The notes under the pieces: generated by a model | What the model saw: the letters and a program-made list of their open reading frames with translations, nothing else | What the model was told of the DNA's origin: nothing | Databases searched by the model: none | Source of the DNA: a virus | Reading direction: 5' to 3' (one strand) | Length of the DNA stretch: 31,607 nt | IMG/VR virus record: IMGVR_UViG_3300031521_000250 | Coordinates: 1 to 31,607 of that record | Part shown: piece after piece, positions 8,414 through 25,974 of the stretch | Layout of the letters: every line of letters begins with the position of its first letter | Position numbering within the stretch: the first letter of the stretch is position 1 | Translations under genes and position numbers: made by a program

Positions 8414-11092
8414 CTATGCCATCTGCGCAAGCCCTTGGTGCACAGTTTTATTATTAAACAATGTAAGTACCATTTCACGATTGCTATTCTTATTAAAACT
8501 TACATGTATCCAAGGCATTCCGCTACCATAATTTTTATATTCCAAAAGTACTTGGTCATATGCTGGTAAAATTTCTGTAATTCTTTTTGCAATAGAATAA
8601 TATTCTGATTTACTTTTACCTGGAAATTGCATATCAACAGCCATACCCATATAATGCTTACTCATAGAACTACCACCTTTATAACGATACCCAGAAGTTA
8701 TTATTACCATTGGGTATTCTGCTAGAATCTTTTCCATAACATTTACAGAAAGATATTGAATATTTTGTACAATCTGCCCAACACTTAATCCCATTTGTGG
8801 TTGAATTTTTTTAATCTTATCAGAAGCTGCTAAATATTGCCTTAAAGAATAATTCTTACTAATTTGAACACCTGTTGCGATATCTTCTTCATTAGTAAAA
8901 TTATCATATTTATAATCTTCAATTTTACCATTTTTCTTTGTTGGTATGTATGTTTCAGATACAGATGGAATAGATTCATTTGGATCAAATTCTGCCTTAC
9001 TTTTCAAATCATCCATATACGGTTGAAAATTATCATCCATATCTTCTGGACTTTCGTATCTTCTTGATGGACCTTCAAATCTATTTCCTGTTGGTGGTAT
9101 TATGCCAACATCATTTTGTAATAGTTCTTGTCGTGTTAATTTATCACCCAATAATAATGGATCATTTAAATCCCTAATAATAACTTCTTGGGGAGTATTT
9201 GGTAATGGTACAGTACCTTTTAATGTTGGTAAATCCATATGCAATATTGTTGGTTTATTTGAATTTACAGAAGTCCCAGCTTTTTGGAATATTTCAGTTG
9301 CATCCATATCAATAGATGGTCCAGCCTTTATTGATGTCTTCTTTGTAGATTGTACTAATAATTCATCAGAAGTATTAATATTAAATTTACTTTTAGAACG
9401 CAATGAGCATACATTCTCGGTAACTAATGTAACACTATCCATAGAATTTAATAACGTTTGCTTTCCAACATCCATATCCCAATTATCGACACATTTCATA
9501 TCAATATTATGCGCGGATAACACATTAACATCACCATCAAATGTTTCTAAATTATAATTTTTACATTTTATATTATATTCTCCTTGCACATAATGATTAA
9601 AATTTCCATGTACCGTAGTATTTAAATCATTCTTAACTATTATGTCGGCATCACCATATACTTCGGCAGTCATATTATTTTGCACAAGAAGATTGCAATC
9701 TCCTTCCACAGTAATATTGAGATTACCTTTTAGCATTACATTTCCATTTCTTTCAATGATTGTGAAACCATCGCCAACTATTTTATTAACTTTTGTACCA
9801 TTGTTGTCTATTTCTGAAAAAGTTCCAGATGGATGAAATGTGTGTATTCTTACATTGTCCGGTGTAGAATCATGTTCAGTAATAATTCCGCCATGCGTTA
9901 CACTAACTTGATTATTGGGATATGTAGGATTCGCGGGGACACGAGGTTGGTCCCAAGTACTTTGCGTACCTGCTATGCGAGTATGTTTTGTTCTATCCGC
10001 TTCTTTAACACCTATTATAGTACCACTTAAAGATTCTCCACGAGCAAGGCGATTTACGTCCTGTTCTTGAATAAGACTTCTTTTAGGATAAATTCCATTG
10101 GGGTCGGAAAACCCTACTGTAGAACTTGCTTTGGCAGTTGTTGGCGGTAAACTTTGTTCAACGCTTGGGCGTGATATAGAAGGGGCTTTACCTGTTAGTG
10201 CGGTATGTCCATATTTATAATATGTAGAACATGAGGTGCCATTTGCATCATCTTTTACATAACCACCACGCAACCATTTTGCAGCTCCACCTGCACCTTG
10301 TAAATGCGCAACCATGAGCGCACCGCAAACGTGGTCACGGTCCGAATCATTTCGCAATAACCCCTTATTATAAAGGGTTTTAAAATTTCGAGCAAGTAGG
10401 GCATCCATTGCGGTTTCTTGTGCATCCTGATTGGTAAACCATGTATCACGCGATACTACACCATTCTTGCCCAACCAAGATTCTGAGTATTTTAAATCTT
10501 TATTATTTGTTCCACGCCTACAATACCCAAGGTCTACTAATACCGGACCCCCAAATTGGTAAGCCCCAATAAAACCGAGTTGGTTTAGTGCTGAATAATT
10601 GCCTCCACTTTCGTGCCTTTTTATTGTTGCTTTTAATTTATTAACATCGGAAGAACTTAGCGGTCCAATGGCTTGCGGTTTAGAATCTTTTGATGGAATA
10701 ATTGACTGCCCACCTTTGTCAGTTGGTATCGCATTTGGGTCCATGTCGTCAGCATCAACTTTATATGCCATTTGATTAACACTATCTCCAGAAATATCAT
10801 ATGTGCTTTGTATGTCCTGGGGGATGCCTTGTAGCGCACCAAACACAATTGTTGTTTGCCAAGTATCATCAAATGAACCAACCAAAACCCATGATCCTGG
10901 TAAAAAATTGCAACCAGAACTTCCTATTCCAGAAATTTGGGCAGTAGGATTAAGAGGCATTGACCATGCTAGGGAAGAAGTAGGAAGAGCAAATTTATCT
11001 GGAGTATGTAATCCTATAATTCTTACGCGCACTCTTCCTAGTGATAAATTATCGTTAATGTCCTCCACGACACCCACCCGAATTAGTTCCAT
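8414..11092 (-). CDS. 5: gp5-like baseplate hub/needle protein with two predicted murein hydrolase domains, 892 aa
   Basis: In T4, gp5 (575 aa) is the cell-puncturing needle: OB fold, lysozyme, then a beta-helix. Here residues 1-92 are the OB-fold part ('RVRVRIIGLH', 'PGSWVLVGSFDD'). Residues 150-300 hold a lysozyme/transglycosylase-like domain with 'RHESGGNYSALNQLGFIGAY' around the likely catalytic Glu161; this is not the T4-lysozyme type. Residues 395-600 are an irregular V/I-N/D beta-helix ('GNLNITVEGDCNLLV', 'GDADIIVKNDLNTTVHGNF'). Residues 745-870 form a second domain with 'SKHYMGMAVD' (His813, Asp820) and 'WIHVSF' (His863), the zinc-ligand signature of M15-type D,D-peptidases. The protein ends in an amber codon. 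The start is set by GAGGAGA. Its first 10 bases overlap the end of the GIY-YIG gene. Confidence 0.93.
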   Translation of the reverse strand: MELIRVGVVEDINDNLSLGRVRVRIIGLHTPDKFALPTSSLAWSMPLNPTAQISGIGSSGCNFLPGSWVLVGSFDDTWQTTIVFGALQGIPQDIQSTYDISGDSVNQMAYKVDADDMDPNAIPTDKGGQSIIPSKDSKPQAIGPLSSSDVNKLKATIKRHESGGNYSALNQLGFIGAYQFGGPVLVDLGYCRRGTNNKDLKYSESWLGKNGVVSRDTWFTNQDAQETAMDALLARNFKTLYNKGLLRNDSDRDHVCGALMVAHLQGAGGAAKWLRGGYVKDDANGTSCSTYYKYGHTALTGKAPSISRPSVEQSLPPTTAKASSTVGFSDPNGIYPKRSLIQEQDVNRLARGESLSGTIIGVKEADRTKHTRIAGTQSTWDQPRVPANPTYPNNQVSVTHGGIITEHDSTPDNVRIHTFHPSGTFSEIDNNGTKVNKIVGDGFTIIERNGNVMLKGNLNITVEGDCNLLVQNNMTAEVYGDADIIVKNDLNTTVHGNFNHYVQGEYNIKCKNYNLETFDGDVNVLSAHNIDMKCVDNWDMDVGKQTLLNSMDSVTLVTENVCSLRSKSKFNINTSDELLVQSTKKTSIKAGPSIDMDATEIFQKAGTSVNSNKPTILHMDLPTLKGTVPLPNTPQEVIIRDLNDPLLLGDKLTRQELLQNDVGIIPPTGNRFEGPSRRYESPEDMDDNFQPYMDDLKSKAEFDPNESIPSVSETYIPTKKNGKIEDYKYDNFTNEEDIATGVQISKNYSLRQYLAASDKIKKIQPQMGLSVGQIVQNIQYLSVNVMEKILAEYPMVIITSGYRYKGGSSMSKHYMGMAVDMQFPGKSKSEYYSIAKRITEILPAYDQVLLEYKNYGSGMPWIHVSFNKNSNREMVLTLFNNKTVHQGLAQMA

Positions 11093-11874
11093 AAATCTAT
11101 CTCCTCTTGTGTTGCATACCTACATTTAAAACCTTTGTGATGAGTGCGTTTCCCTTTTGCTACTCTTGACATATTGGTAGATGTTATATCATTAACCCTA
11201 CAAAATTCATTTAATCCAGTTACAAATTCTTCGCTACCATCTGGATATGTTATAATATATTTTTTAGCACAGTGATGCAATTCTCCAAATTTTCCAAAAT
11301 TTATAGCATTTTCACCGGAAATCTTAGCAATATGATCTGGTGTGTGTTTATATCCAAATGCTGGGTGATCTTCTCCAAATTTTCCATATTGTGAATTATT
11401 TTCACCACCATTTATTTCTCTTAATTTTATTAACGTGTCCTCCGAATGCAAATTTCCTAAATGTGCTAATCTATTATTTTTTTTAGCTTCTTCTGTATGA
11501 GTTTTACCATAAAATGGATTATCTTCGCCAATATATCTACCTTTCATAGTTTCCTTTTGTTTTTGAATCGATTCATTGGAATGAAGATTATTAAATCCAC
11601 CACTTTGTAAATTATACCCATATGGAACCCTAGTATTATGTTCTACTATATATAATTCTTCTTTAATATTAGCTTCTTCTAATGTTAATCCATATTCTAA
11701 AATTTCTTCAATAAAGTATTCTAACCCATTATATTTTTTTATAGCACTATGAAATACTCTACACCCTTCCGAATTTCTATGTGCAGATTTTCTCTTTTTT
11801 AAATTACATGTTTGCCCAATATAACTTTTGCCACTAGGACTAGTAAATTTATATATTAAGTAAGTTTTTTCCAT
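11083..11874 (-). CDS. GIY-YIG homing endonuclease with NUMOD3 repeats, 263 aa
   Basis: A free-standing DNA endonuclease of the Seg/intron-endonuclease type, which spreads by cutting genomes that lack it. The GIY-YIG core is at the N-terminus ('YLIYKFTSPSGKSYIGQT', residues 5-22) with a following conserved Arg in 'KKRKSAHR'. From about residue 115 come NUMOD3-type units (GEDNPFYGKTHTEEAK, GENNSQYGKFGEDHPAFGYK). The C-terminus 'KKYIITYPDGSEEFVTGL' through 'KGFKCRY' is shared with the other GIY-YIG gene at 21144-22031. It sits between the gp27-like gene and gp5, has its own late box, and overlaps the gp5 start by 10 bases. No defect is seen in the frame, so it may be active. Confidence 0.92.
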   Translation of the reverse strand: MEKTYLIYKFTSPSGKSYIGQTCNLKKRKSAHRNSEGCRVFHSAIKKYNGLEYFIEEILEYGLTLEEANIKEELYIVEHNTRVPYGYNLQSGGFNNLHSNESIQKQKETMKGRYIGEDNPFYGKTHTEEAKKNNRLAHLGNLHSEDTLIKLREINGGENNSQYGKFGEDHPAFGYKHTPDHIAKISGENAINFGKFGELHHCAKKYIITYPDGSEEFVTGLNEFCRVNDITSTNMSRVAKGKRTHHKGFKCRYATQEEIDLWN

Positions 11875-13776: not shown

Positions 13777-15843
13777 TTATTGCTGAATGATTCCGAAGTT
13801 ATTGATATTACTAATAAAATTTAGACCTTGTGCAGTTGAATCTTGATTGACTACATGTATGCGAACGCCGCCATCACCCATTCCTCCATCTTTCGATTGA
13901 GTAGTGTAATTATTTGTTATAATTGTAGGCGCACCATCTGCCTTCTTTTGTAATAAATTATCGGCTGCTTGATGTGCTACAGTCAATTCTTCAGTTTTTG
14001 GTGATATAGCCTTCGGAATTATTGCTGAAGTTGCTGGGACAATTTTTGGGGCATTAATTGGCTTCCCAGATTTATCTCTTGGTATATTGTCTGGTTGGGG
14101 AGCAGGTTTGCCCTTATTTCCCTGTATTACCTGAACACCTTCCGAAGTTTTTCCTTCAAGTCTATTTTGCTCTGCTTGTGTTGGGGTAAATGGATGTTTA
14201 ATTGCATTTATTACTCCATCTATTGAATTTTTTATTGCACTTGATATAGAATCAGTAAGTTTTGTTACTGAACTTCTCACAGAGTCTGAAATATCTTTTG
14301 CAAGTTCTTTTGCGGTATGTTTCATAAAATCTGGAGTAATTGCATTTGCAATACCAGTTGCAAATTTGCTTGCACTAGCAATTGCCGGATCTACTACATT
14401 TTTTGACCAAGGTACTTCAGATAATGCTCCAGCAACTTTACCAACACCTCGTCCACCTTCTATTGCTAATCCACCAATACCTTGGAGAATTTTTCCTGGA
14501 ATAGTTTTTCCTCCTGATATTTTACCAGTAGCTGGATTAATATATTCTTGTCCTGGAGTTTTTAATGATTCAAGATTTAATGCTATACCTGCTGCTGCTT
14601 CTCCACCACTTCTAATTGTTCCTATAGTCGCATCACCAATTGACTGCAATAATTTTCCAGCACCAGTTGACTCGTATTTTTTACCAGTAATTTGATTTAT
14701 ATGCTCTTGTCCCGGCTTTCCCATTCCTTCTACTATTTTTGGGCTATTAACTATAGTTTCAAATGTTGATTTAGCAACTTCTGTTGCATCTTTAATAAAC
14801 TTTTTTGTTTCTTCTGGAATTAGAGCGGAAGCAATTACTCCAGCTAATGCGGCTAATGCTCCACCAACTAACAAAGCATCCATAACTTTTTTGATTAAAG
14901 ATTCTTCAGTTTTTACCTCTGTTACACTACCATCTTTGCCATTTTCGTGTCCAGTTTTATCCGAAATGTGTTTCAAGTACTTCAAAACTTTTTGTTGAAA
15001 ATTTAGAGTTTCTTGATTAAGTCTTGTGGCATTTATATCTACCACACCATTCTCTTTTATTACTGGAGCAACAGAAGCAGTTTTAGTGGAAGATTCATTA
15101 ACAATTGGCAATGGTTGACTTCCAACTCTTGCAGAACCACTTGCAACAGAATTGAACATACCAGCAGAAGATGTTTTAGGAGCAACAGCACTTGCGGCAA
15201 CTGTTCCCAATATTGCTCCGCCTACGCCGAGAGCAGTTGGGTTGACTTCCGCAAAAGATTCCTTAATCTTTCTGGTTGCCTTTTCGACTTTTGATTCTTC
15301 TTTTTGCCCATCGCCTTTGAGCGATATAAACTTACCAGCATGTAATTTTTCAGCATTTGCGATTTGTTCAGCTTGTTTAAATTGCCAATCTTTTGGGCGT
15401 TCATACCCCTTGGTAAAATCTTCCCATGACTGGGCAATATTAGTAGAACCTTTAATTTTATCTCTAGTTTTTGAATATTTATTATTTAATTCATGATCCA
15501 TATATTGCAATTGTTCTTGCATATTAGTTTCGTATGGGTCTTTGTTGTGAAATTTTCCTAAACCAGTTAACCGCTCCTTTCTCCATTGGGCGATTCCAAA
15601 TGAGTCGGCAGTATTACCTTTTTCTTTAATTCCATGATTAAGTTTAGATTCTTGTACTAATCTTGCAGTAATAGCGGCGGCAGATTCTTTTGTATATCCC
15701 TTATCCATAAAGAAAGTCATAACCTCTTTTGGAAGTTCTCTGTGTGCTTGCTTTGGCTTTTTATGTTCATCTGGATTGAACGTAGAAAATTCTTTCTTAT
15801 TAGAATCTTCTATAGGCTCACCAGTTTGTAAATTGATATCCAT
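13777..15843 (-). CDS. Tail-lysozyme domain protein, possible tape measure, 688 aa
   Basis: Residues 38-170 carry a phage tail-lysozyme domain: 'KESAAAITARLVQESKLNHG' with likely catalytic Glu65, then 'SFGIAQWRKERL'. Two hydrophobic Gly/Ala segments follow ('LGVGGAILGTVAASAV' near 205 and 'ALLVGGALAALAGVIASALI' near 323). A duplicated unit of the form PGQE(H/Y)IN..TGK...GK(L/I)LQ.IG starts near residues 377 and 438. Then there is an amphipathic helical region and a Pro/Lys-rich linker. Lysozyme plus membrane-like helices is typical of tape-measure proteins. At about 1.5 angstroms per residue the length would suit a ~100 nm tail like T4's. Its place beside gp53 and the hub fits a gp29 substitute, but I see no gp29 sequence match; that role is inference. 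GGTAAGGA precedes the start. Confidence 0.78.
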   Translation of the reverse strand: MDINLQTGEPIEDSNKKEFSTFNPDEHKKPKQAHRELPKEVMTFFMDKGYTKESAAAITARLVQESKLNHGIKEKGNTADSFGIAQWRKERLTGLGKFHNKDPYETNMQEQLQYMDHELNNKYSKTRDKIKGSTNIAQSWEDFTKGYERPKDWQFKQAEQIANAEKLHAGKFISLKGDGQKEESKVEKATRKIKESFAEVNPTALGVGGAILGTVAASAVAPKTSSAGMFNSVASGSARVGSQPLPIVNESSTKTASVAPVIKENGVVDINATRLNQETLNFQQKVLKYLKHISDKTGHENGKDGSVTEVKTEESLIKKVMDALLVGGALAALAGVIASALIPEETKKFIKDATEVAKSTFETIVNSPKIVEGMGKPGQEHINQITGKKYESTGAGKLLQSIGDATIGTIRSGGEAAAGIALNLESLKTPGQEYINPATGKISGGKTIPGKILQGIGGLAIEGGRGVGKVAGALSEVPWSKNVVDPAIASASKFATGIANAITPDFMKHTAKELAKDISDSVRSSVTKLTDSISSAIKNSIDGVINAIKHPFTPTQAEQNRLEGKTSEGVQVIQGNKGKPAPQPDNIPRDKSGKPINAPKIVPATSAIIPKAISPKTEELTVAHQAADNLLQKKADGAPTIITNNYTTQSKDGGMGDGGVRIHVVNQDSTAQGLNFISNINNFGIIQQ

Positions 15844-15877: not shown

Positions 15878-15885
15878 TATTTATA
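15878..15885 (-). promoter_or_regulatory. T4-type late promoter for the tail-lysozyme/gp53/gp27 operon
   Basis: Minus-strand TATAAATA followed by CTAGTATAGCC, 35 bases before the 15843 start. It lies only 10 bases from the -35 element of the opposite-facing early promoter at 15896. Confidence 0.8.
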
Positions 15886-15895
15886 CTAAATATAT

Positions 15896-15924
15896 TTGAC
15901 ATTTTTATAAATATAATTTATAAT
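15896..15924 (+). promoter_or_regulatory. Perfect sigma70-type early promoter for the plus-strand moron
   Basis: TTGACA at 15896-15901, a 17-base spacer, and TATAAT at 15919-15924, exact consensus. The flanks ATATTTGACA and TATAATATTATC are identical to those of the promoter at 26182-26210. It points rightward into the two small plus-strand genes. Confidence 0.88.
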
Positions 15925-15954
15925 ATTATCTCAAATAAAACTATGGGGAATAAA

Positions 15955-16206
15955 ATGAATAAACAAGAGTTACTTGAATGGGTTCAATCAATGCCCGATA
16001 ACGTACAGATTTTATTATTATCAGTTGATGAAAATGTCTCTGAAAAAATAGGTACTCCTAATTTTTTGGGATTTAATGGGGCAATTTATAGTGCAGAGTA
16101 TGAACAAAATTATGAAAATAGATTGACAGTATCATTGCACTATAAAACAACTGTTAGGTATGAATACAGTGACAATAAAACAGCAAACAGAAGGGTAATA
16201 AAATGA
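15955..16206 (+). CDS. Small protein of unknown function, first gene of the moron, 83 aa
   Basis: No family is recognised. I chose the ATG at 15955 because GGGGAA lies six bases upstream; an in-frame ATG at 15943 is possible. The N-terminus 'NKQELLEWVQSMPDNVQILL' looks like a short amphipathic helix, and the remainder is beta-like and Tyr-rich ('RLTVSLHYKTTVRYEY'). There is no signal peptide, membrane segment or cysteine, so it is predicted cytoplasmic. Its TGA overlaps the ATG of the next gene (ATGA), so the two are translationally coupled and probably act together. It is read from a consensus early promoter on the strand opposite to the surrounding tail genes. Confidence 0.75.
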   Translation: MNKQELLEWVQSMPDNVQILLLSVDENVSEKIGTPNFLGFNGAIYSAEYEQNYENRLTVSLHYKTTVRYEYSDNKTANRRVIK

Positions 16207-16502
16207 AAAATAAAATATTAATTGCTACTATTATTTTGGCATCTTCATCAGTCTATGCAGATTATAATATAGGTGATGTATCAGGTGGCGAATATAAAGT
16301 ATATAGTGAAACAATAAGTAGATATGGCGACGATGTTAGATTTGTATTAGGCCATATGAATGAAAATAATAGTATTGACACAATGGATATAATTGTAAAT
16401 TGTACTACGCATAGAACTATTGATAATGACTATTTGCCTCCTCAAAGTGTTGGTAGAGAGGCAACAGATTATGTATGCGATTTGACAAATGATATTGAAT
16501 GA
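16203..16502 (+). CDS. Exported small protein with Sec signal peptide, 99 aa
   Basis: The N-terminus 'MKNKILIATIILASSSVYA' is a classic signal peptide: Lys residues, a hydrophobic core, and an A-x-A type cleavage site before DYN. The mature ~80-aa product would be periplasmic. It has two cysteines (in 'VNCTTH' and 'YVCDL') that could form a disulphide after export. It is acidic and has no membrane anchor. No family is recognised. It overlaps the previous gene by four bases and is followed by an intrinsic terminator, closing a two-gene unit. Expression from an early promoter suggests action on the host envelope during infection, for example superinfection exclusion or lysis timing; that is inference. 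Confidence 0.8.
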   Translation: MKNKILIATIILASSSVYADYNIGDVSGGEYKVYSETISRYGDDVRFVLGHMNENNSIDTMDIIVNCTTHRTIDNDYLPPQSVGREATDYVCDLTNDIE

Positions 16503-16515
16503 GGTTTAAAGAAGG

Positions 16516-16538
16516 AAAGCCCCTTGCGGGGCTTTTTT
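16516..16538 (+). terminator. Intrinsic terminator after the moron
   Basis: AAAGCCCC, loop TTGC, GGGGCTTT, ending in a six-T run. It lies 14 bases after the stop at 16502 and just before the converging end of the gp51-like gene (16543). Confidence 0.92.
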
Positions 16539-16542
16539 AATG

Positions 16543-16722
16543 TTATTCATATTGCGTTTTCTCTTTTTCGGCATTCTTTTCATTTATATGTTGAATCAAC
16601 AAACTTGTATACACTTCCTTCTCCCAAGGCACCATATTATCTAGCTCAGTTAATGAAAAACCATGATGTTTCATTAGGTCAAAATTAAGTTTATAATGGT
16701 TATACATACTTGTTGATCCCAT
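16543..16722 (-). CDS. 51: gp51-like baseplate hub assembly protein, 59 aa
   Basis: A small gene immediately after gp26. The protein has 'YKLNFDLMKHHGFSLTELDN' and 'PWEKEVYTSLLIQHI', the pattern of the small protein annotated as gp51-like in T4-like marine phages, where it follows gp26. T4 gp51 itself is much longer (about 249 aa), so the name rests on the marine relatives. The ATG is only two bases after the gp26 TAA, and no Shine-Dalgarno sequence lies close upstream (the nearest G-rich stretch, GAGGGG, is about 30 bases away inside gp26). Translation is therefore probably coupled to gp26. The gene pair resembles two-part tail assembly chaperones. Confidence 0.75.
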   Translation of the reverse strand: MGSTSMYNHYKLNFDLMKHHGFSLTELDNMVPWEKEVYTSLLIQHINEKNAEKEKTQYE

Positions 16723-16724
16723 TG

Positions 16725-17441
16725 TTACTGGAAAATTTGCTGCAATCCCCTCACTGAGTAAATATTATGGTGGTTACAATTGGGACAATCAAATATAATT
16801 TCTTCCGAAACAGTGGGTATGTTTGCGAAAAAAGTCGTAATCATTCCCATTTGTTTACCGGAAAGACTATCAAAAAATTCCGCAATCTCCTCAATAGTTT
16901 GGTCAGCAATATGAAATGTTTCATCATTATGAGTAACGCATTCAATATTGTTTGCCAATGCATTGAGAACTTCTTCGGGAGGAGAAGATGGGTTATTTAT
17001 CACATCTAAGGAATCGAGAGTTGCGAGTGTTGGATATTTTAAAGTTAGGAACATATCTGTATCAACTTCTATTATATTTGCCCTCTTGATCAATTTTGGT
17101 TGCTCAATTAGGTTGAGCTGCATAACATAGGGTACTTCCTCCTTACAGGCTGAACACAATACAGAAAGGTTGAGTTCTTCACCAAAACTTTTCATTATGA
17201 TCGAGAGGTACAACCACTCGACATCGCAACTTATTAATTTTGGAATATTAATTTTTGAAACTATACAGTTAGTTAATATTTGCTCAAGTGCTAGAGCCAT
17301 TTGTTCTGGAGATTGTGATTGAAGTGCTGCTAGTAAGATTTTTTCCTCTTTTGCAAGAAATCCGCGAAATATTATTTCAGTTTTAGGATTACTTGGTAAT
17401 GTAGTTTTGTAAAGTGAATGTGAAATTTTTGGCAGTGCCAT
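16725..17441 (-). CDS. 26: gp26-like baseplate hub protein, 238 aa
   Basis: A member of the T4 gp26 base-plate family; T4 gp26 (208 aa) is a hub subunit or assembly factor. Family marks are 'TEIIFRGFLAKEEKILLAAL' (residues 21-40), 'ALEQILTNCIV', and 'DVEWLYLSIIMKSFGE'. A C-x2-C pair in 'VLCSACKEE' and a second in 'FDCPNCNHHN' near the C-terminus could bind zinc. The start ATG has AGGA ten bases upstream. It is followed at once by the gp51-like gene and preceded by the split HNH gene, which has been inserted between the gp54-like gene and this one. Confidence 0.88.
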   Translation of the reverse strand: MALPKISHSLYKTTLPSNPKTEIIFRGFLAKEEKILLAALQSQSPEQMALALEQILTNCIVSKINIPKLISCDVEWLYLSIIMKSFGEELNLSVLCSACKEEVPYVMQLNLIEQPKLIKRANIIEVDTDMFLTLKYPTLATLDSLDVINNPSSPPEEVLNALANNIECVTHNDETFHIADQTIEEIAEFFDSLSGKQMGMITTFFANIPTVSEEIIFDCPNCNHHNIYSVRGLQQIFQ

Positions 17442-17453
17442 TGTAGTGTCCTA

Positions 17454-17837
17454 TTAAGTTGTTATATTACTATTTATGGTAAATTCTTCTGGAAGTTTGT
17501 TGCCTTTCTTTATATTATCTTCTGCCCATAATGGTTGAAAATTTGTATAATGGTTAAGTTGGAGTAGATGTTCTTCATCCAATGCCAGTGATACCGGAAA
17601 TATATGGTCAAGATGCCATAAATGTCTATTATCCCAAGACATACCATCTAGAAACTGATTTTCTATATGAATCTTAAATTCTTCAAAGGAACATCCAAGA
17701 ATTTCCGATGATTTTGATCTTTTAGTATATGGGCTTTTAGAAAATATTGAACTAATTGATTTTCGTATACTTATCTTTAACCTATATACTGGATCAGCCA
17801 GTTCCCTGTTACGCCGTTGTCTATAAATTTTTTTCAT
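17454..17837 (-). pseudogene. HNH homing endonuclease, C-terminal part (catalytic half of a split gene), 127 aa
   Basis: It carries the HNH nuclease core 'HLWHLDHIFPVS' and 'LNHYTNFQPLWAEDNIKKGN'. Residues 12-60 match the pre-HNH region of the family ('DPVYRLKISIRKSISSIF', 'SEILGCSFEEFKIHIENQF'). The normal N-terminal zinc-ribbon is encoded by the adjacent upstream frame (17834-18154), with which it overlaps by ATGA. The two frames differ by one base, and related genes (including 23833-24489 here) have both parts in one frame. So this is either a recent frameshift or a two-subunit form. The catalytic His and Asn residues are intact. Confidence 0.75.
17469..17476 (-). promoter_or_regulatory. 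Possible weak late promoter for gp26
   Basis: Minus-strand CATAAATA, one base off the TATAAATA box, followed by GTAATATAAC as at true boxes, 28 bases before the gp26 start. It overlaps the end of the HNH gene. Confidence 0.45.
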
Positions 17838-18154
17838 ATTGGTTTTGTATATAGTTTTGATTTTTCTATATATTTTTCAGGATTTTCCGCATATTTTATT
17901 CTTTCTTTTTCTGCAATAATATCTTTATTTTCATCATAATATAGTTTTGATTTTTCTATATATTTTTCAGGATTTTCCTTATATACTTCTCGCAATTTTC
18001 TTAATTTTTCATCTTTATTTTTCTCATAATGTATCTTGGATAATAATATAGCACAAGTTTTACATTTGCCACATAATCCATCTTTATTTATTTTATTTTT
18101 GTGAAACTCACTTTCATCTTTTTCAATGCCACATGTAAAACACATCTTACTCAT
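17834..18154 (-). pseudogene. HNH homing endonuclease, N-terminal zinc-ribbon part of a split gene, 106 aa
   Basis: The N-terminus has 'CFTCGIEKDESEFHK' and 'CGKCKTC', giving C-x2-C pairs of a zinc ribbon, then Lys/Glu/Tyr-rich repeats (ENPEKYIEKSKLY twice). It is homologous to the first part of the gene at 23833-24489 ('CSKCGIEKDESEFHK'). Its ATG overlaps the stop of the gp54-like gene (ATGA). The frame ends just after the second repeat with a short unrelated tail, TKPI, where the family normally runs on into the HNH part. The next frame (17454-17837) supplies that part. A one-base shift near the repeat is the simplest explanation. Confidence 0.75.
17849..17978. repeat. 40-base exact direct repeat inside the split HNH gene
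   Basis: Copies at 17849-17888 and 17939-17978, spaced 90 bases (30 codons), encoding ENPEKYIEKSKLY. The reading-frame break lies right at the end of the second coding copy. Confidence 0.9.
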
Positions 18155-19923: not shown

Positions 19924-19931
19924 TATAAATA
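19924..19931 (+). promoter_or_regulatory. T4-type late promoter for gp48 (plus strand)
   Basis: Plus-strand TATAAATA followed by GTAGTATAC, 43 bases before the gp48 ATG. It is the only late box on the plus strand seen here, and it faces the minus-strand box at 19944. Confidence 0.8.
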
Positions 19932-19974: not shown

Positions 19975-21117
19975 ATGAGTGATCCATTTTTTGAACCACA
20001 ACCAAATAAGCCAAATTTTGGGAATACTAATGACCCATTTTTTCAGGCGCAACCTAATAATCCAAATTTTGGGAATACTAATGACCCATTTTTTAAAGAA
20101 CAAGATAGACTGAATAAACTTAAAAAAAAATCAGCTACTCCTAAAAAAGTTGATGGGACACAAACAGATGACCAATCAAATCAAGGTGTAAAATTATTGA
20201 CATACCCAATCGATATTTCAAATTATCCGAATGCTAATGTTGTAATGTTTAGTATATTACAAACTAGTGATATTGGGATTTCACAACAATCAGTTAGAGG
20301 TTCGGGACAAGATGTTTCGAAAAATATTAAGCAAACTGTTACTGGTGGTAAGGAACTAAATGCCCCAAATATTGTGGATAATATTCATAATGCTTCACAA
20401 GCCATCCCGAAAACAATTAACGAAGTCCTTGGGAAGTTAGGTGATTCAATGAATTTCAACAGTTATGTGCCAAGAACACGCACAATAATTTGTCTTCCTA
20501 TTCCAGATATGGATACAAAAAGCGATTATTCGCTTAATTATCAAACATCAAACTTAGGGCTTGCCGGAAACCTTGTGAATAATTTGTACAGTGGAGGAGG
20601 CATTTCACAATTTATAAAAAATGCTTCAGGAAGTGCTGCTAGATATGCTCTAGGAGCTGCTGGAACAGTATTACAAGGAACTTTAGGAAGAGATGTTGGA
20701 GATATAAATGGAACCATTGAAAGCGCAACGAGGAGCGTATACAATCCCAAATTGGAATTATTATTTAAGAGTGTAGATTTGAGGTGTTTTGCGTTCACAT
20801 ACTCGTTCGCACCATCATCGAAAAGTGAAGCCGAGTTATTACATAATATAGTTAAAGAGTTTAGAATGGCTGCGACTCCTGGCTTAAATCCTAACGGGTT
20901 TTATATGACGTACCCGTTCGAAATTGACGTAAAATATATGTTCAGGGGAGGGGAAAACCAATATCTTCCTAAGATTGCCAGATGTTGTATTACTAAGATT
21001 AATACATCTTATGATAGAAGTCTTTTAAATAATGGTTGCCCAGCCATAATTAATATAAGATTGGAGGTGATGGAAATTTTGCAGCAAATGCGAGCAGACA
21101 TCAATAATGAATTTTGA
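19975..21117 (+). CDS. 48: gp48-like baseplate tail-tube cap protein, 380 aa
   Basis: In T4, gp48 (364 aa) and gp54 cap the baseplate and start the tail tube. The C-terminal half shows the gp48 pattern: 'TIESATRSVYNPKLELLFKS', 'LRCFAFTYSFAPSSKSEAEL', then 'YMTYPFEIDVKYMF' and 'INIRLEVMEIL'. The first 45 residues are unusual: three copies of a DPFF-(E/Q/K)-x-Q unit joined by 'PNFGNTN', rich in Asn, Pro and Phe and probably disordered. AAGGAA lies before the ATG. It is the only structural gene on the plus strand, separated from its partners gp54 and gp4 by the face-to-face late promoters, which suggests a local inversion. Confidence 0.85.
   Translation: MSDPFFEPQPNKPNFGNTNDPFFQAQPNNPNFGNTNDPFFKEQDRLNKLKKKSATPKKVDGTQTDDQSNQGVKLLTYPIDISNYPNANVVMFSILQTSDIGISQQSVRGSGQDVSKNIKQTVTGGKELNAPNIVDNIHNASQAIPKTINEVLGKLGDSMNFNSYVPRTRTIICLPIPDMDTKSDYSLNYQTSNLGLAGNLVNNLYSGGGISQFIKNASGSAARYALGAAGTVLQGTLGRDVGDINGTIESATRSVYNPKLELLFKSVDLRCFAFTYSFAPSSKSEAELLHNIVKEFRMAATPGLNPNGFYMTYPFEIDVKYMFRGGENQYLPKIARCCITKINTSYDRSLLNNGCPAIINIRLEVMEILQQMRADINNEF
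20011..20094. repeat. 33-base exact direct repeat in the 5' end of gp48
   Basis: Copies at 20011-20043 and 20062-20094, spaced 51 bases (17 codons), encoding PNFGNTNDPFF. Confidence 0.9.
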
Positions 21118-21128
21118 TGTAATAATAA

Positions 21129-21148
21129 GGTGAGTTGCACAACTCACC
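21129..21148. terminator. Hairpin between converging gp48 and GIY-YIG genes
   Basis: GGTGAGTT, loop GCAC, AACTCACC: eight perfect pairs, 11 bases after the gp48 stop and overlapping the end of the GIY-YIG gene. On the minus strand it is followed by TTATTATTA, on the plus strand by no T-run, so it is better as a terminator for the leftward transcript. Confidence 0.65.
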
Positions 21149-22031
21149 AATATCTACATTTATAATTTTTATGATTAGATTGTTTTGATTTAGCAACTTT
21201 TGTCATGGGACTATTATCTAAGTTATATAACTTACAAAATCCAACTAATCCAATTATTACTTCTTCATGTCCATCTGGAAAGGTAATTATATATTTCTTT
21301 TTTTGACGTTCACTTAATTCTTCGCAATATTCTCTAGTGCGTGTTTTACCACTATTAGCTTCGCTTATTTTTTGTTTAGCTTCGTTTGTGTGGGTTTTAT
21401 TAAACATGCCATTATTTTCACCACTAATAGCTTCGCTTATTTTTCTACGTGTTTCTTCTGATACAATTTTACCCCACATTGGATTATCTTCGCCCATTCT
21501 AGTTCCGGTTCGGCTTTCGCTCATTTTTAATTTAGATTCTTCAGAATGTCTAAATCCATAATGCAAACAATCTTCACCAAATTTGCCCCAATTTGGATTA
21601 TTTTCACCACTAAATGCGTCTCTAAGTTTCTGTTTATGTTCTTCACTAAATTCTCTACCAAAATTTGGATTATTTTCTCCAGCCCTGGTTATACACATAA
21701 GAGCTTTCGTTTCTTCCGTGTGACCATTACATACAAAATTCTTTCCACCATTTTGACGATTTAAATAATTTGGATTTCTGGCTGCGTCAACACTGATTAA
21801 ATATAACTCTTCCCATTTTAGCGCAGCCTCTTTAGTTGCATGATTTTTAGTATATAAAACTTCAAATGAATCTTTTCCATGTTCCGTTATTAATGCTTTA
21901 ACTATTTCCGATGTTGTGAAATATTTCACCCAAAAGTCATCTGGGTGACAGTCAATAGCAGTCTTAGACCCATAATAAAGTTGTCCAGTAATTATAAATC
22001 TTATTAAATAAGTATATGGTTGGTATATCAT
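21144..22031 (-). CDS. GIY-YIG homing endonuclease with NUMOD3 repeats, 295 aa
   Basis: The start is taken at the ATG at 22031 because GGAGAA lies directly before it; a longer frame with a TTG start at 22103 would run through a terminator hairpin. The core begins 'YTYLIRFIITGQLYYGSKTA' (the Y-x-I...YYGS form of GIY-YIG), followed by 'VDAARNPNYLNRQNGGKNF'. Five NUMOD3-type units (GENNPNFGREFSEEHKQKL, GEDNPMWGKIVSEETRRKIS and others) are a DNA-binding array. The C-terminus 'KKYIITFPDGHEEVIIGL' to 'KNYKCRYW' is the same module as in the gene at 11083-11874, so the two are relatives. Its stop is TGA inside the hairpin at 21129. It has probably moved in next to gp48. Confidence 0.9.
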   Translation of the reverse strand: MIYQPYTYLIRFIITGQLYYGSKTAIDCHPDDFWVKYFTTSEIVKALITEHGKDSFEVLYTKNHATKEAALKWEELYLISVDAARNPNYLNRQNGGKNFVCNGHTEETKALMCITRAGENNPNFGREFSEEHKQKLRDAFSGENNPNWGKFGEDCLHYGFRHSEESKLKMSESRTGTRMGEDNPMWGKIVSEETRRKISEAISGENNGMFNKTHTNEAKQKISEANSGKTRTREYCEELSERQKKKYIITFPDGHEEVIIGLVGFCKLYNLDNSPMTKVAKSKQSNHKNYKCRYW

Positions 22032-22055
22032 ATTTTCTCCAATTCCACCCTGCAT

Positions 22056-22102
22056 AAAAAATGGCGAAGACCTTTGGTATTTTACTCCCAAAGAATTCGC
22101 CA
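22056..22102 (-). terminator. Intrinsic terminator after the P-loop gene
   Basis: On the minus strand, TGGCGAA and CTTTGG pair with CCAAAG and TTCGCCA across a 10-base loop (7 + 6 pairs with a small internal loop), followed by TTTTTT. It begins 7 bases after the P-loop gene stop and ends 25 bases before the GIY-YIG start. Confidence 0.88.
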
Positions 22103-22108
22103 ATTATT

Positions 22109-22567
22109 TTAAAATAATGTCGTTAATCCTACAATCATTTCATTGCCAGTTTTTGTTAGATATTTAATAAGTTCATTAAATCCTCTACCACTAAGTGTTG
22201 TTAATGATAACTCATCACACCATATAGTTTCATATGATTTTTGAAATATATCATCAGCAAAACTAGTTATACTGTTATATGCAACTCTTGTTGCCAAAGT
22301 GTTTGGTGAATTTTTCATCATCAACCGATTATTATATATTACCAAATCATCTATAGAAGCATGTTCTGCTATGTATGTACTTTTGCCACATTGTCTTGGT
22401 AATTGTAATATAATAGTTCTATATTCTTTAATATATAAATCTTTTCCCAAAAATTGTTTCATTGATGATGTTTCACCTTCTTTTGTCATCATCATAGATA
22501 TAGCACTATCAACCACAGTGTAACATGTAAAAAATCGCTTTTCTGTTAATTTATTTATTTTATACAT
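22109..22567 (-). CDS. Small P-loop NTPase-like protein of unknown role, 152 aa
   Basis: Residues 51-64, 'TIILQLPRQCGKST', form a Walker A motif of the LPRQ-x-GKS/T kind seen in terminase-like and helicase-like ATPases. Residues 114-120, 'TIWCDEL', look like Walker B. Between them is 'DLVIYNNRLMMKN'. At 152 aa there is room only for the core ATPase, and the nuclease half expected in a large terminase is absent, so it is either a degenerate piece or a free-standing small ATPase. It has a possible early promoter upstream and a strong terminator downstream, so it is a single-gene unit. Role not known. Confidence 0.65.
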   Translation of the reverse strand: MYKINKLTEKRFFTCYTVVDSAISMMMTKEGETSSMKQFLGKDLYIKEYRTIILQLPRQCGKSTYIAEHASIDDLVIYNNRLMMKNSPNTLATRVAYNSITSFADDIFQKSYETIWCDELSLTTLSGRGFNELIKYLTKTGNEMIVGLTTLF

Positions 22568-23807: not shown

Positions 23808-23836
23808 ATTATATCAGTTATATTTTGTATTGTCAA
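23808..23836 (-). promoter_or_regulatory. Perfect sigma70-type early promoter for gp32
   Basis: On the minus strand, TTGACA (23831-23836), a 17-base spacer, and TATAAT (23808-23813). It sits at the very end of the broken HNH gene, so gp32 does not depend on transcription from upstream. Confidence 0.88.
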
Positions 23837-24489
23837 GTTGTAATCATATTATATTCCTCCGGTAGTTTGTTGCCTTTTCTAATATTATCTGCCGCCCATA
23901 ATGGTTGGAAATTAGTGTAATGATTAAGTAGAATTAGATGTTCTTCACTTTCAGCTAAAGAAATTGGATAAATGTGATCAAGATGCCACAAATAACGATT
24001 ATCCCAAGTCATACCATCTTGAAATTGATTCTCAATATGAATCATAAATTCTTTAAAAGAGCAACCGAGTATTTTTGCAGTTTTGGAAGATTTTTTAATG
24101 CCACTATTTTTAAATGCGCACTATATTAAACTTCTTATATTTTTTGTAAGTTTAAATAATGGGTCAATTAAATTTCTTTTTGCTACATATTTTGCGGCGC
24201 ATTTTAATGATTTTTCTTTATTATTTTCCGCATAAAGTTTCCTCTTTTTCTTTATTTCTTCTGAGTTTTCTTCATAATATTTTGATTTATCTTCTAATAT
24301 TTGCAATTTATTCTCTTCATAATATAACTTTTTCTTTTCCTTTATTTCTATAAAGTTATCTTTTCTATATAGTTTTCCCATTTCTTTAGCGCAAGATTTA
24401 CATATACTAGTTAATCCATCTTTTGCTGCTTTCTTTTTATGAAACTCACTCTCATCTTTTTCAATACCACATTTTGAACATTTTTTCAA
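23833..24489 (-). pseudogene. HNH homing endonuclease broken by one in-frame amber codon
   Basis: The frame from 24489 encodes a zinc-ribbon N-terminus ('CSKCGIEKDESEFHKKKAAK', 'CKSCAKEM'), then Lys/Glu/Tyr repeats. It stops at TAG (24121-24123) after 'NIRSLI'. The same frame then continues without a stop: 'CAFKNSGIKKSSKTAKILGC', 'CSFKEFMIHIENQF', and the HNH core 'YLWHLDHIYPIS' with 'LNHYTNFQPLWAADNIRKGN', to a stop at 23833. The homologous gene pair at 17454-18154 shows what the joined protein looks like. A single base change would restore a 218-aa enzyme. The catalytic residues in the second part are intact, suggesting the break is recent or is suppressed. TAG also ends gp5 here, so it is a real stop. 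Confidence 0.88.
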
Positions 24490-24720: not shown

Positions 24721-25305
24721 TTAAATTAAAGTTTTCTTATAAATTCTCTTAATTTTTTCACTATCGTATTTTATGAATCCTCCTTCAAAAAATTTCATAT
24801 AATTGTTTATAAATATTTTCCTCTCGTTCCAAATATAATCATAAAAATTCAAACTAAACACATCAAATATCTCCATTTGAAGCAATATAAAGCTCTCTAA
24901 GGAGATTTTACCACTCAAGACATATCTTACTATTCCTGGTTGATAATCATCGTTTATATCGAATAAATCGGCCTCAGAATCAAGTTTTAATATATCTTGC
25001 TCAAAGAAATAACTTATACTACTTTTCATTTTACAAAAATCTACATAAATCTTCATTGACTTTTCATAATCACAAAAAGGGTAGTTATTACCCACTACAG
25101 AATTTGCCAAAAAGAAATATATAAGTTCTTCTGAATGAAGTTTCGAAACAACTTTCTTGTATCCATATTTATCTTCACGTTGATTGAATGCCTTTCCACT
25201 TATCTTGAGAAGACCTTTCTCAACCATATGGTATTTTGATGGAGAAAGGCTTTCTTTAATTGATTGATGAATAATACACCCAACTATTGGTTGAACTAGA
25301 GCCAT
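24721..25305 (-). CDS. 59: gp59-like DNA helicase loader, 194 aa
   Basis: gp59 loads the gp41 replicative helicase onto gp32-covered DNA; T4 gp59 is 217 aa. The sequence follows the family: 'GKAFNQREDKYGYKKVVSKL' (about residues 37-56), 'ELIYFFLANSVV', 'SYFFEQDILKL', and near the C-terminus 'YVLSGKISLESFILLQMEIF' and 'DYIWNERK'. A basic end (SEKIKRIYKKTLI) is typical. It is in the gp32 neighbourhood, as in T4. The ATG lies 10 bases inside the upstream 116-aa gene and lacks a strong ribosome site, so its translation is probably coupled. Confidence 0.8.
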   Translation of the reverse strand: MALVQPIVGCIIHQSIKESLSPSKYHMVEKGLLKISGKAFNQREDKYGYKKVVSKLHSEELIYFFLANSVVGNNYPFCDYEKSMKIYVDFCKMKSSISYFFEQDILKLDSEADLFDINDDYQPGIVRYVLSGKISLESFILLQMEIFDVFSLNFYDYIWNERKIFINNYMKFFEGGFIKYDSEKIKRIYKKTLI

Positions 25306-25646
25306 CTATCATCCATAGAAGGATAATCTTCCTCCTCTGCTTTATGATTTCTAAAACAAAAATCTTCTATCACCTCCCAATCTACCAAATAATCTATTAA
25401 ATCTGATTGATGTGCATTTATTTTAAATTCTCCTGTAGATGTTTCAACATTGGTAACTAAAATAGAAAGCAGTTCGATTTCTTCATATTCAGGTGGTTCC
25501 CAATGACTTCCAGGCCATCCTGGAATATACCTATATTCTATTTCTACATTAAGTCCTATAAATTCTTGCGGTATGCATAAAAGTTTAGACATTTCTTGTG
25601 ATATTTCCTCATCACAAACCCAGTAATAAAAATTAAATTCTGACAT
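25296..25646 (-). CDS. Protein of unknown function, 116 aa; paralogue of its upstream neighbour
   Basis: It begins 'MSEFNFYYWVCDEEI', almost the same as the gene at 25660-25974, and shares the pattern LLC.P.E..GLN...(D/E)Y.YIP, then STGEF.I..HQSDLI..L.D.E.IE. It is acidic and has an extra Trp/Pro loop ('GWPGSHWEPPEYEEIELLSI') that the other copy lacks. No known domain is recognised. AGGAAA lies before the start, and its end overlaps the gp59 gene. Tandem duplication followed by divergence is clear; the function is not. Confidence 0.72.
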   Translation of the reverse strand: MSEFNFYYWVCDEEISQEMSKLLCIPQEFIGLNVEIEYRYIPGWPGSHWEPPEYEEIELLSILVTNVETSTGEFKINAHQSDLIDYLVDWEVIEDFCFRNHKAEEEDYPSMDDRWL

Positions 25647-25659
25647 TATATTTTCCTAA

Positions 25660-25974
25660 CTACCTTTCAATCCAAAAATCTGGAGAATAATGATGTCTTA
25701 GGCAAGCATTTTCTATAGTTTCTGTATCAATTAAATGCTCTATCAAAGACGATTGATGGGGAGTTATCGTAAATGTTGATGTATCACAATCTATTGAATA
25801 TGTATAAATATAATTAATTTCAATATCCTCATAATCATATTTACCTACACCTTTTGGAATATATGTATAATCAACTACAATATTAAGACCCCACATTTCA
25901 TGTGGTAAACATAATATTTTTTGGATTTTGGCTATCTCATCTTCAATACAATAATAAAAATTAAATTCTGACAT
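25660..25974 (-). CDS. Protein of unknown function, 104 aa; paralogue of its downstream neighbour
   Basis: It shares 'MSEFNFYY', 'LCLPHEMWGLNIVVDYTYIP', and 'STFTITPHQSSLIEHLID' with the 116-aa gene that follows 13 bases later. It is acidic, rich in Tyr and Ile, and has no signal peptide or membrane segment. It lies five bases after the stop of the 56-aa gene and has no strong ribosome site, so coupling is likely. No family is recognised. Confidence 0.72.
   Translation of the reverse strand: MSEFNFYYCIEDEIAKIQKILCLPHEMWGLNIVVDYTYIPKGVGKYDYEDIEINYIYTYSIDCDTSTFTITPHQSSLIEHLIDTETIENACLRHHYSPDFWIER

What the first reader, a model, noticed from the sequence alone, without database searches (positions are those of the whole stretch)
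15896..16538. Early 'moron' with an exported protein inserted in the late tail region
Two small overlapping genes lie on the opposite strand to the surrounding tail operon, with a perfect sigma70 promoter and a strong terminator. The second product has a clean Sec signal peptide and two cysteines. This unit splits gp26/gp51 from the tail-lysozyme gene. Neither protein matches a family I know. An envelope-directed role such as superinfection exclusion would suit it.
Basis: partly seen in the sequence, partly recalled or inferred. Interest (0 to 1): 0.7.

Follow-up and report, generated by a model that had tools for sequence, protein, structure and literature searches.

The report
Early two-gene cassette in phage tail operon
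An uncultured T4-like phage carries an extra pair of small genes of unknown family, one coding for a protein probably exported to the cell envelope, inserted backwards into its tail operon under a promoter like those of its early genes; it is an accessory cassette of a known general kind whose job is still only guessed at.

Summary
On the + strand at 15896-16538, inside a minus-strand tail operon, lies a unit made of a 12/12 sigma70 promoter, ORF A (83 aa), ORF B (99 aa, ATGA overlap) and a strong terminator. Three exact sigma70 promoters occur in the window against 0.06 expected; the other two precede the gp59 operon and gp32, so early expression is well supported. Late promoters precede tail genes, including one facing away from the unit at 15885(-). 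In 67 of 70 related contigs gp26, gp51 and the tape-measure gene are contiguous (169-210 bp); here the gap is 881 bp, so the unit is a derived insertion. ORF B has a standard Sec signal by rule (SignalP not run) and a very acidic 80-aa mature part with two cysteines. Neither protein has a relative in Pfam, PHROGs, NCBIfam, PADLOC, 50,697 phages, 72,556 plasmids or exact-seed scans of IMG/VR and GTDB genomes, except in the same phage. Structure models were poor and gave no match. Superinfection exclusion in the envelope (analogous to, not homologous with, T4 Spackle) is the best guess, about 1 in 3. It is a new member of a known kind: an early moron-like ORFan cassette.

The parts
15896..15924 (+). 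Sigma70 promoter, 12/12 consensus, 17-bp spacer
   Evidence: same class as the promoters before the gp59 operon (26210-) and gp32 (23836-)
15955..16206 (+). ORF A, 83 aa, no export signal, no known family
16203..16502 (+). ORF B, 99 aa, Sec signal (1-19, cleavage after VYA), acidic 80-aa mature part, Cys67 and Cys92, no known family
16513..16538 (+). Intrinsic terminator; the hairpin also forms on the minus strand just behind the gp51 stop codon, but without a good T-run
15878..15885 (-). Late promoter TATAAATA (extended form TATAAATACTAGTATA) for the tape-measure gene, back to back with the cassette promoter
   Evidence: score 25.4
13777..15843 (-). Downstream flank: tape-measure-like ORF with N-terminal Phage_lysozyme2 domain
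16543..16722 (-). Upstream flank: gp51-like baseplate hub assembly catalyst
   Evidence: phrog_634, 3e-22
16725..17441 (-). Upstream flank: gp26-like baseplate hub protein
   Evidence: PF12322, 6e-45

Best explanation
The unit is an early-expressed accessory (moron-like) cassette that was inserted backwards between gp51 and the tape-measure gene of a T4-superfamily phage. Host sigma70 polymerase transcribes it early as a two-gene message that ends at its own terminator (read from sequence; not measured). ORF A stays in the cytoplasm. ORF B is exported by Sec to the periplasm, is cleaved after VYA and folds with one disulfide (inferred). There it most likely alters the envelope against later infecting phages, a superinfection-exclusion role; blocking an incoming tail's cell-wall hydrolase, as T4 Spackle does, is one concrete route (guess). 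The tail genes downstream keep late expression from their own late promoter at 15885(-).
For: Exact sigma70 promoter of the class that precedes gp59 and gp32; no credible late promoter on the + strand; own terminator; gp26-gp51-tape measure contiguous in 67 of 70 relatives and split by 881 bp here; Sec signal and two cysteines in B; early, small, exported, acidic (pI 4.2) like Spackle (pI 4.6), and basic cell-wall hydrolase domains in this phage's own tail (PMC7677548).
Against: No homologue of known function and no usable fold; no sequence similarity to Spackle, whose fold is a helical bundle whereas weak models of B are beta. No expression data. Adjacency to the lysozyme gene is a single case and says nothing by itself. 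Small early phage proteins have many possible jobs. The confidence given is for the whole statement; I hold the anatomy and insertion at about 0.9 and the exclusion role at about 0.35.
Confidence: 0.35

Rival explanations
1. Lysis timing: ORF B is a periplasmic regulator of the holin or endolysin (working like the T4 RI antiholin), so the cassette sets the time of lysis.
For: Exported, small, disulfide-capable; in Cr30, Melnitz and three IMG/VR relatives the same junction carries a small membrane protein that looks holin-like by eye.
Against: Those ORFs are on the late strand and unrelated to A or B; no similarity to a lysis family.
Confidence: 0.15
2. Host envelope takeover or protection: ORF B binds a host periplasmic or outer-membrane protein (for example a protease, a stress sensor or a receptor) to help the phage's own growth, with no effect on other phages.
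For: Same early and exported anatomy; very acidic mature protein.
Against: No homologue or partner known; this is a residual class.
Confidence: 0.25
3. Counter-defence or a paired system in which ORF A is the active, cytoplasmic part and ORF B is auxiliary.
For: Tight ATGA coupling of A and B; early timing.
Against: No PADLOC or other family match; the exported partner is unusual for such pairs.
Confidence: 0.12
4. The pair is a structural or tail-assembly part of the phage, expressed with the tail genes.
For: It lies inside the tail gene cluster.
Against: Opposite strand, early promoter, no credible late promoter, absent from relatives' tail operons, Sec signal on B.
Confidence: 0.03
5. Recent, near-neutral ORFan passenger with no fixed function in the phage.
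For: Found in one phage only.
Against: Intact promoter, two intact frames with phage-like codon use, signal peptide, terminator; present in two samples.
Confidence: 0.1

Closest known systems
Morons of tailed phages (lambdoid type)
   Same: Short inserted DNA with ORF(s) flanked by its own promoter and terminator, between genes that adjoin in relatives.
   Different: G+C not distinct from the phage; the host phage looks lytic (T4-like) rather than temperate; two genes in opposite orientation to the late operon.
PeSL promoter-terminator cassettes of T4-like phages (Arbiol 2010, Comeau 2014, as cited in PMC4503421)
   Same: Early promoter plus stem-loop associated with accessory ORFs.
   Different: Here promoter and stem-loop lie at the two ends of a lone unit in a late tail operon, not in a dense array; the original papers were not held, so motifs could not be compared.
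T4 Spackle (gp61.3)
   Same: Early, signal peptide, 75-80 aa acidic mature part, two cysteines.
   Different: No sequence similarity; helical bundle against weakly predicted beta; Spackle lies among replication genes, not in the tail operon; lysozyme inhibition untested for B.
Small membrane ORFs at the gp51/tape-measure junction in Melnitz, Cr30 and three IMG/VR contigs
   Same: Accessory gene, seemingly envelope-directed, at the same junction.
   Different: Late strand, membrane proteins by eye, unrelated sequence.

Membership tests
Moron | ORF(s) flanked by own promoter and terminator | tested here: met
Moron | Inserted between genes adjacent in relatives | tested here: met
   67 of 70 relatives contiguous
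Moron | G+C distinct from the phage | tested here: not met
   cassette 29.7%, genes of the window 23-45%; criterion as stated in PMC1524935
Moron | Transcribed independently of the neighbouring genes | not testable with these tools
   Promoter class and strand predict it; no RNA data
PeSL cassette | Composite early promoter and stem-loop motif at module boundaries | tested here: inconclusive
   Both elements present but at opposite ends; original definition not readable here
T4 Spackle | Sec signal and mature part of about 75 aa with a cysteine pair | tested here: met
T4 Spackle | Sequence homology to Spackle | tested here: not met
   best BLASTP match is in the signal peptide, E 0.49
T4 Spackle | Helical-bundle fold | tested here: inconclusive
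   beta predicted at pLDDT 58-60, too low to decide
T4 Spackle | Inhibits the tail lysozyme | not testable with these tools
   Needs purified proteins
Adhesin_E (PF16747) | Match to the Pfam model | tested here: not met
   no match of ORF B or the window even at E 10; the resemblance was recalled from memory

The most novel reading that the evidence does not exclude
ORF B is the founder of a new family of early, exported inhibitors of phage tail cell-wall hydrolases, sitting next to the tape-measure lysozyme domain whose counterpart it blocks in superinfecting phages: a second, unrelated answer to the problem that Spackle solves.
Probability: 0.1. Interest if true: 0.65.

Novelty: new member of a known kind. 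Interest (0 to 1): 0.3.

Why it matters
It shows an early, envelope-directed ORFan pair placed inside one of the more collinear stretches of T4-superfamily genomes, with promoter classes that predict opposite timing on the two strands. If B excludes superinfecting phages, it would be a new exclusion protein in environmental T4-like phages. As it stands, this is a well-supported annotation with an open function.

Tried and rejected
Relatives of A or B: tblastn in phages and plasmids, exact-seed scans of IMG/VR and GTDB genomes, six-frame phmmer over the fetched loci, whole records of 35 relatives: nothing beyond the same phage. A search of bacterial genomes by kinship was not possible because no genome handle could be obtained. 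Families: Pfam, PHROGs, NCBIfam, PADLOC and PDB sequences (ORF B only); DUF7154 for A (E 0.013) and YLP for B are below their cut-offs and taken as chance. Fold: two AlphaFold jobs without an alignment gave pLDDT 57.5 and 60.3, and Foldseek found no match at E below 0.1; ORF A was not folded. Adhesin_E was suggested by a recalled residue pattern and rejected by its model. A late promoter for the cassette (TATAAATA at 15906+) was rejected: score 6.8, like decoys inside genes. No Rfam match. The structural-gene reading was rejected on strand, promoter and conservation grounds.

Full report
Observation. The window is a 31.6-kb virus record, IMG/VR type, of a T4-superfamily phage. Most of its tail genes run on the minus strand. 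Between the gp51-like gene (16543-16722) and an ORF with an N-terminal tail lysozyme domain (13777-15843, taken as the tape measure by position and length) lies a + strand unit. It consists of a 12/12 sigma70 promoter at 15896-15924, ORF A 15955-16206, ORF B 16203-16502 with an ATGA overlap, and a terminator at 16513-16538.

Is it more than chance? Exact TTGACA-N16/18-TATAAT sites number three in the window; second-order Markov shuffles give 0.06 on average, never more than one in 200. The other two lie before the gp59 operon (26210-) and gp32 (23836-); an 11/12 site lies before uvsY (26716-). The cassette promoter and the gp59-operon promoter share 79% identity over 52 bases. So the unit uses the promoter class of this phage's replication genes. 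Late promoters have an extended form close to TATAAATAnTAGTATA; one at 15885(-) faces the tape-measure gene, back to back with the cassette promoter. The TATAAATA inside the cassette promoter spacer scores 6.8, while the sites taken as late promoters score 13-29 and decoys up to 11.7. The sites taken as true trained the matrix, so their scores are flattered; the comparison with decoys is not affected by that.

Insertion. An alignment of gp26 fetched 80 relatives from IMG/VR. In 70 the next large ORF was in reach, and in 67 of these gp26, gp51 and the tape measure are contiguous, with 169-210 bp from the end of gp26 to the tape measure. In three there is an extra small same-strand ORF. P-SSM2, S-P4 and Marzo are contiguous too; Cr30 and Melnitz carry a small same-strand ORF there. 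The inserts of the three contigs, Cr30 and Melnitz look like small membrane proteins by eye and are unrelated to A or B. The window has 881 bp at this place. The cassette is therefore a derived insertion, at a junction that now and then takes accessory genes. Only one of 80 relatives' sets was examined, drawn by similarity of gp26, and many are marine; closer relatives of this phage were not found.

The proteins. ORF B starts MKNK-ILIATIILASS-SVYA/D, with mean hydropathy 2.45 over the core; this is a standard Sec signal by rule, though SignalP could not be run. The mature part is 80 aa, charge -11, pI 4.2, with Cys67 and Cys92 of the precursor. ORF A has no export signal. No relative was found in any library or collection apart from a 99.99% identical contig of the same phage in another sample. 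The scans of IMG/VR and GTDB rest on exact short peptides and see close relatives only, so distant ones may exist. AlphaFold without an alignment gave pLDDT 57.5 for the whole protein and 60.3 for the mature part, both with a strand-rich meander; Foldseek found no match. These models are too weak to name a fold.

Function. Early, exported, small, acidic and disulfide-capable is also the profile of T4 Spackle, an early periplasmic protein that binds a basic surface of the gp5 tail lysozyme and inhibits it (PMC7677548). The tail here has three possible cell-wall hydrolase regions: Phage_lysozyme2 in the tape measure, a lysozyme-like stretch in the gp5 homologue (read by eye; only weak aggregation-promoting-factor matches) and Peptidase_M15 at its end. 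All three have pI above 8.7. But B has no sequence similarity to Spackle and the weak models are not helical. It is not shown to be a Spackle; it may work like one. Lysis control, envelope takeover and counter-defence are not excluded. I put envelope exclusion by any route at about one in three and the tail-hydrolase inhibitor reading at one in ten.

Verdict. An early moron-like cassette, confirmed in anatomy and as an insertion, with proteins of unknown family and inferred function. It meets the promoter-ORF-terminator and insertion criteria of a moron but not the G+C criterion, as was noted for most novel ORFs of T4-like phages (PMC1524935).

Noticed in passing
17454-18154 (-) and 23833-24489 (-): Two split endonuclease-VII/HNH-like ORF pairs of similar sequence (about 79-81% identical in parts), one between gp26 and the tail-tube gene, one just upstream of the gp32 promoter.
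   Followed up: partly
11083-11874 (-) and 21144-22103 (-): Homing-endonuclease-like ORFs with NUMOD3-type repeats; the first is a GIY-YIG enzyme between the gp27-like and gp5-like genes, the second follows a short ORF with a P-loop-like stretch (22109-22567) that may be a broken gene.
   Followed up: partly
8414-11092 (-): gp5 homologue carries Gp5_OB, a lysozyme-like stretch and a C-terminal Peptidase_M15 domain, so this tail may hold three cell-wall hydrolases.
   Followed up: partly
13777-15843 (-), residues 39-166: Phage_lysozyme2 domain at the N-terminus of the tape-measure-like protein; only 4 of 46 tape measures scanned, this one included, match that family, and other positions are used in at least two of them.
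   Followed up: partly
L008:4319-4648, L009:4372-4620, L017:2601-2924, L019:3661-4137, L054:4877-5203: Small, apparently membrane-spanning ORFs between gp51 and the tape measure in several T4-superfamily phages; holin-like by eye, not tested.
   Followed up: no
25296-25646 and 25660-25974 (-): Two tandem paralogous small ORFs (MSEFNFYY...) of unknown family in the gp59 early operon.
   Followed up: no
19975-20103 (+): Repeated NPNFGNTNDPFF-like units at the N-terminus of the 380-aa + strand tail ORF, which has its own late promoter at 19924; divergent late promoters at 19924(+) and 19951(-) overlap.
   Followed up: no
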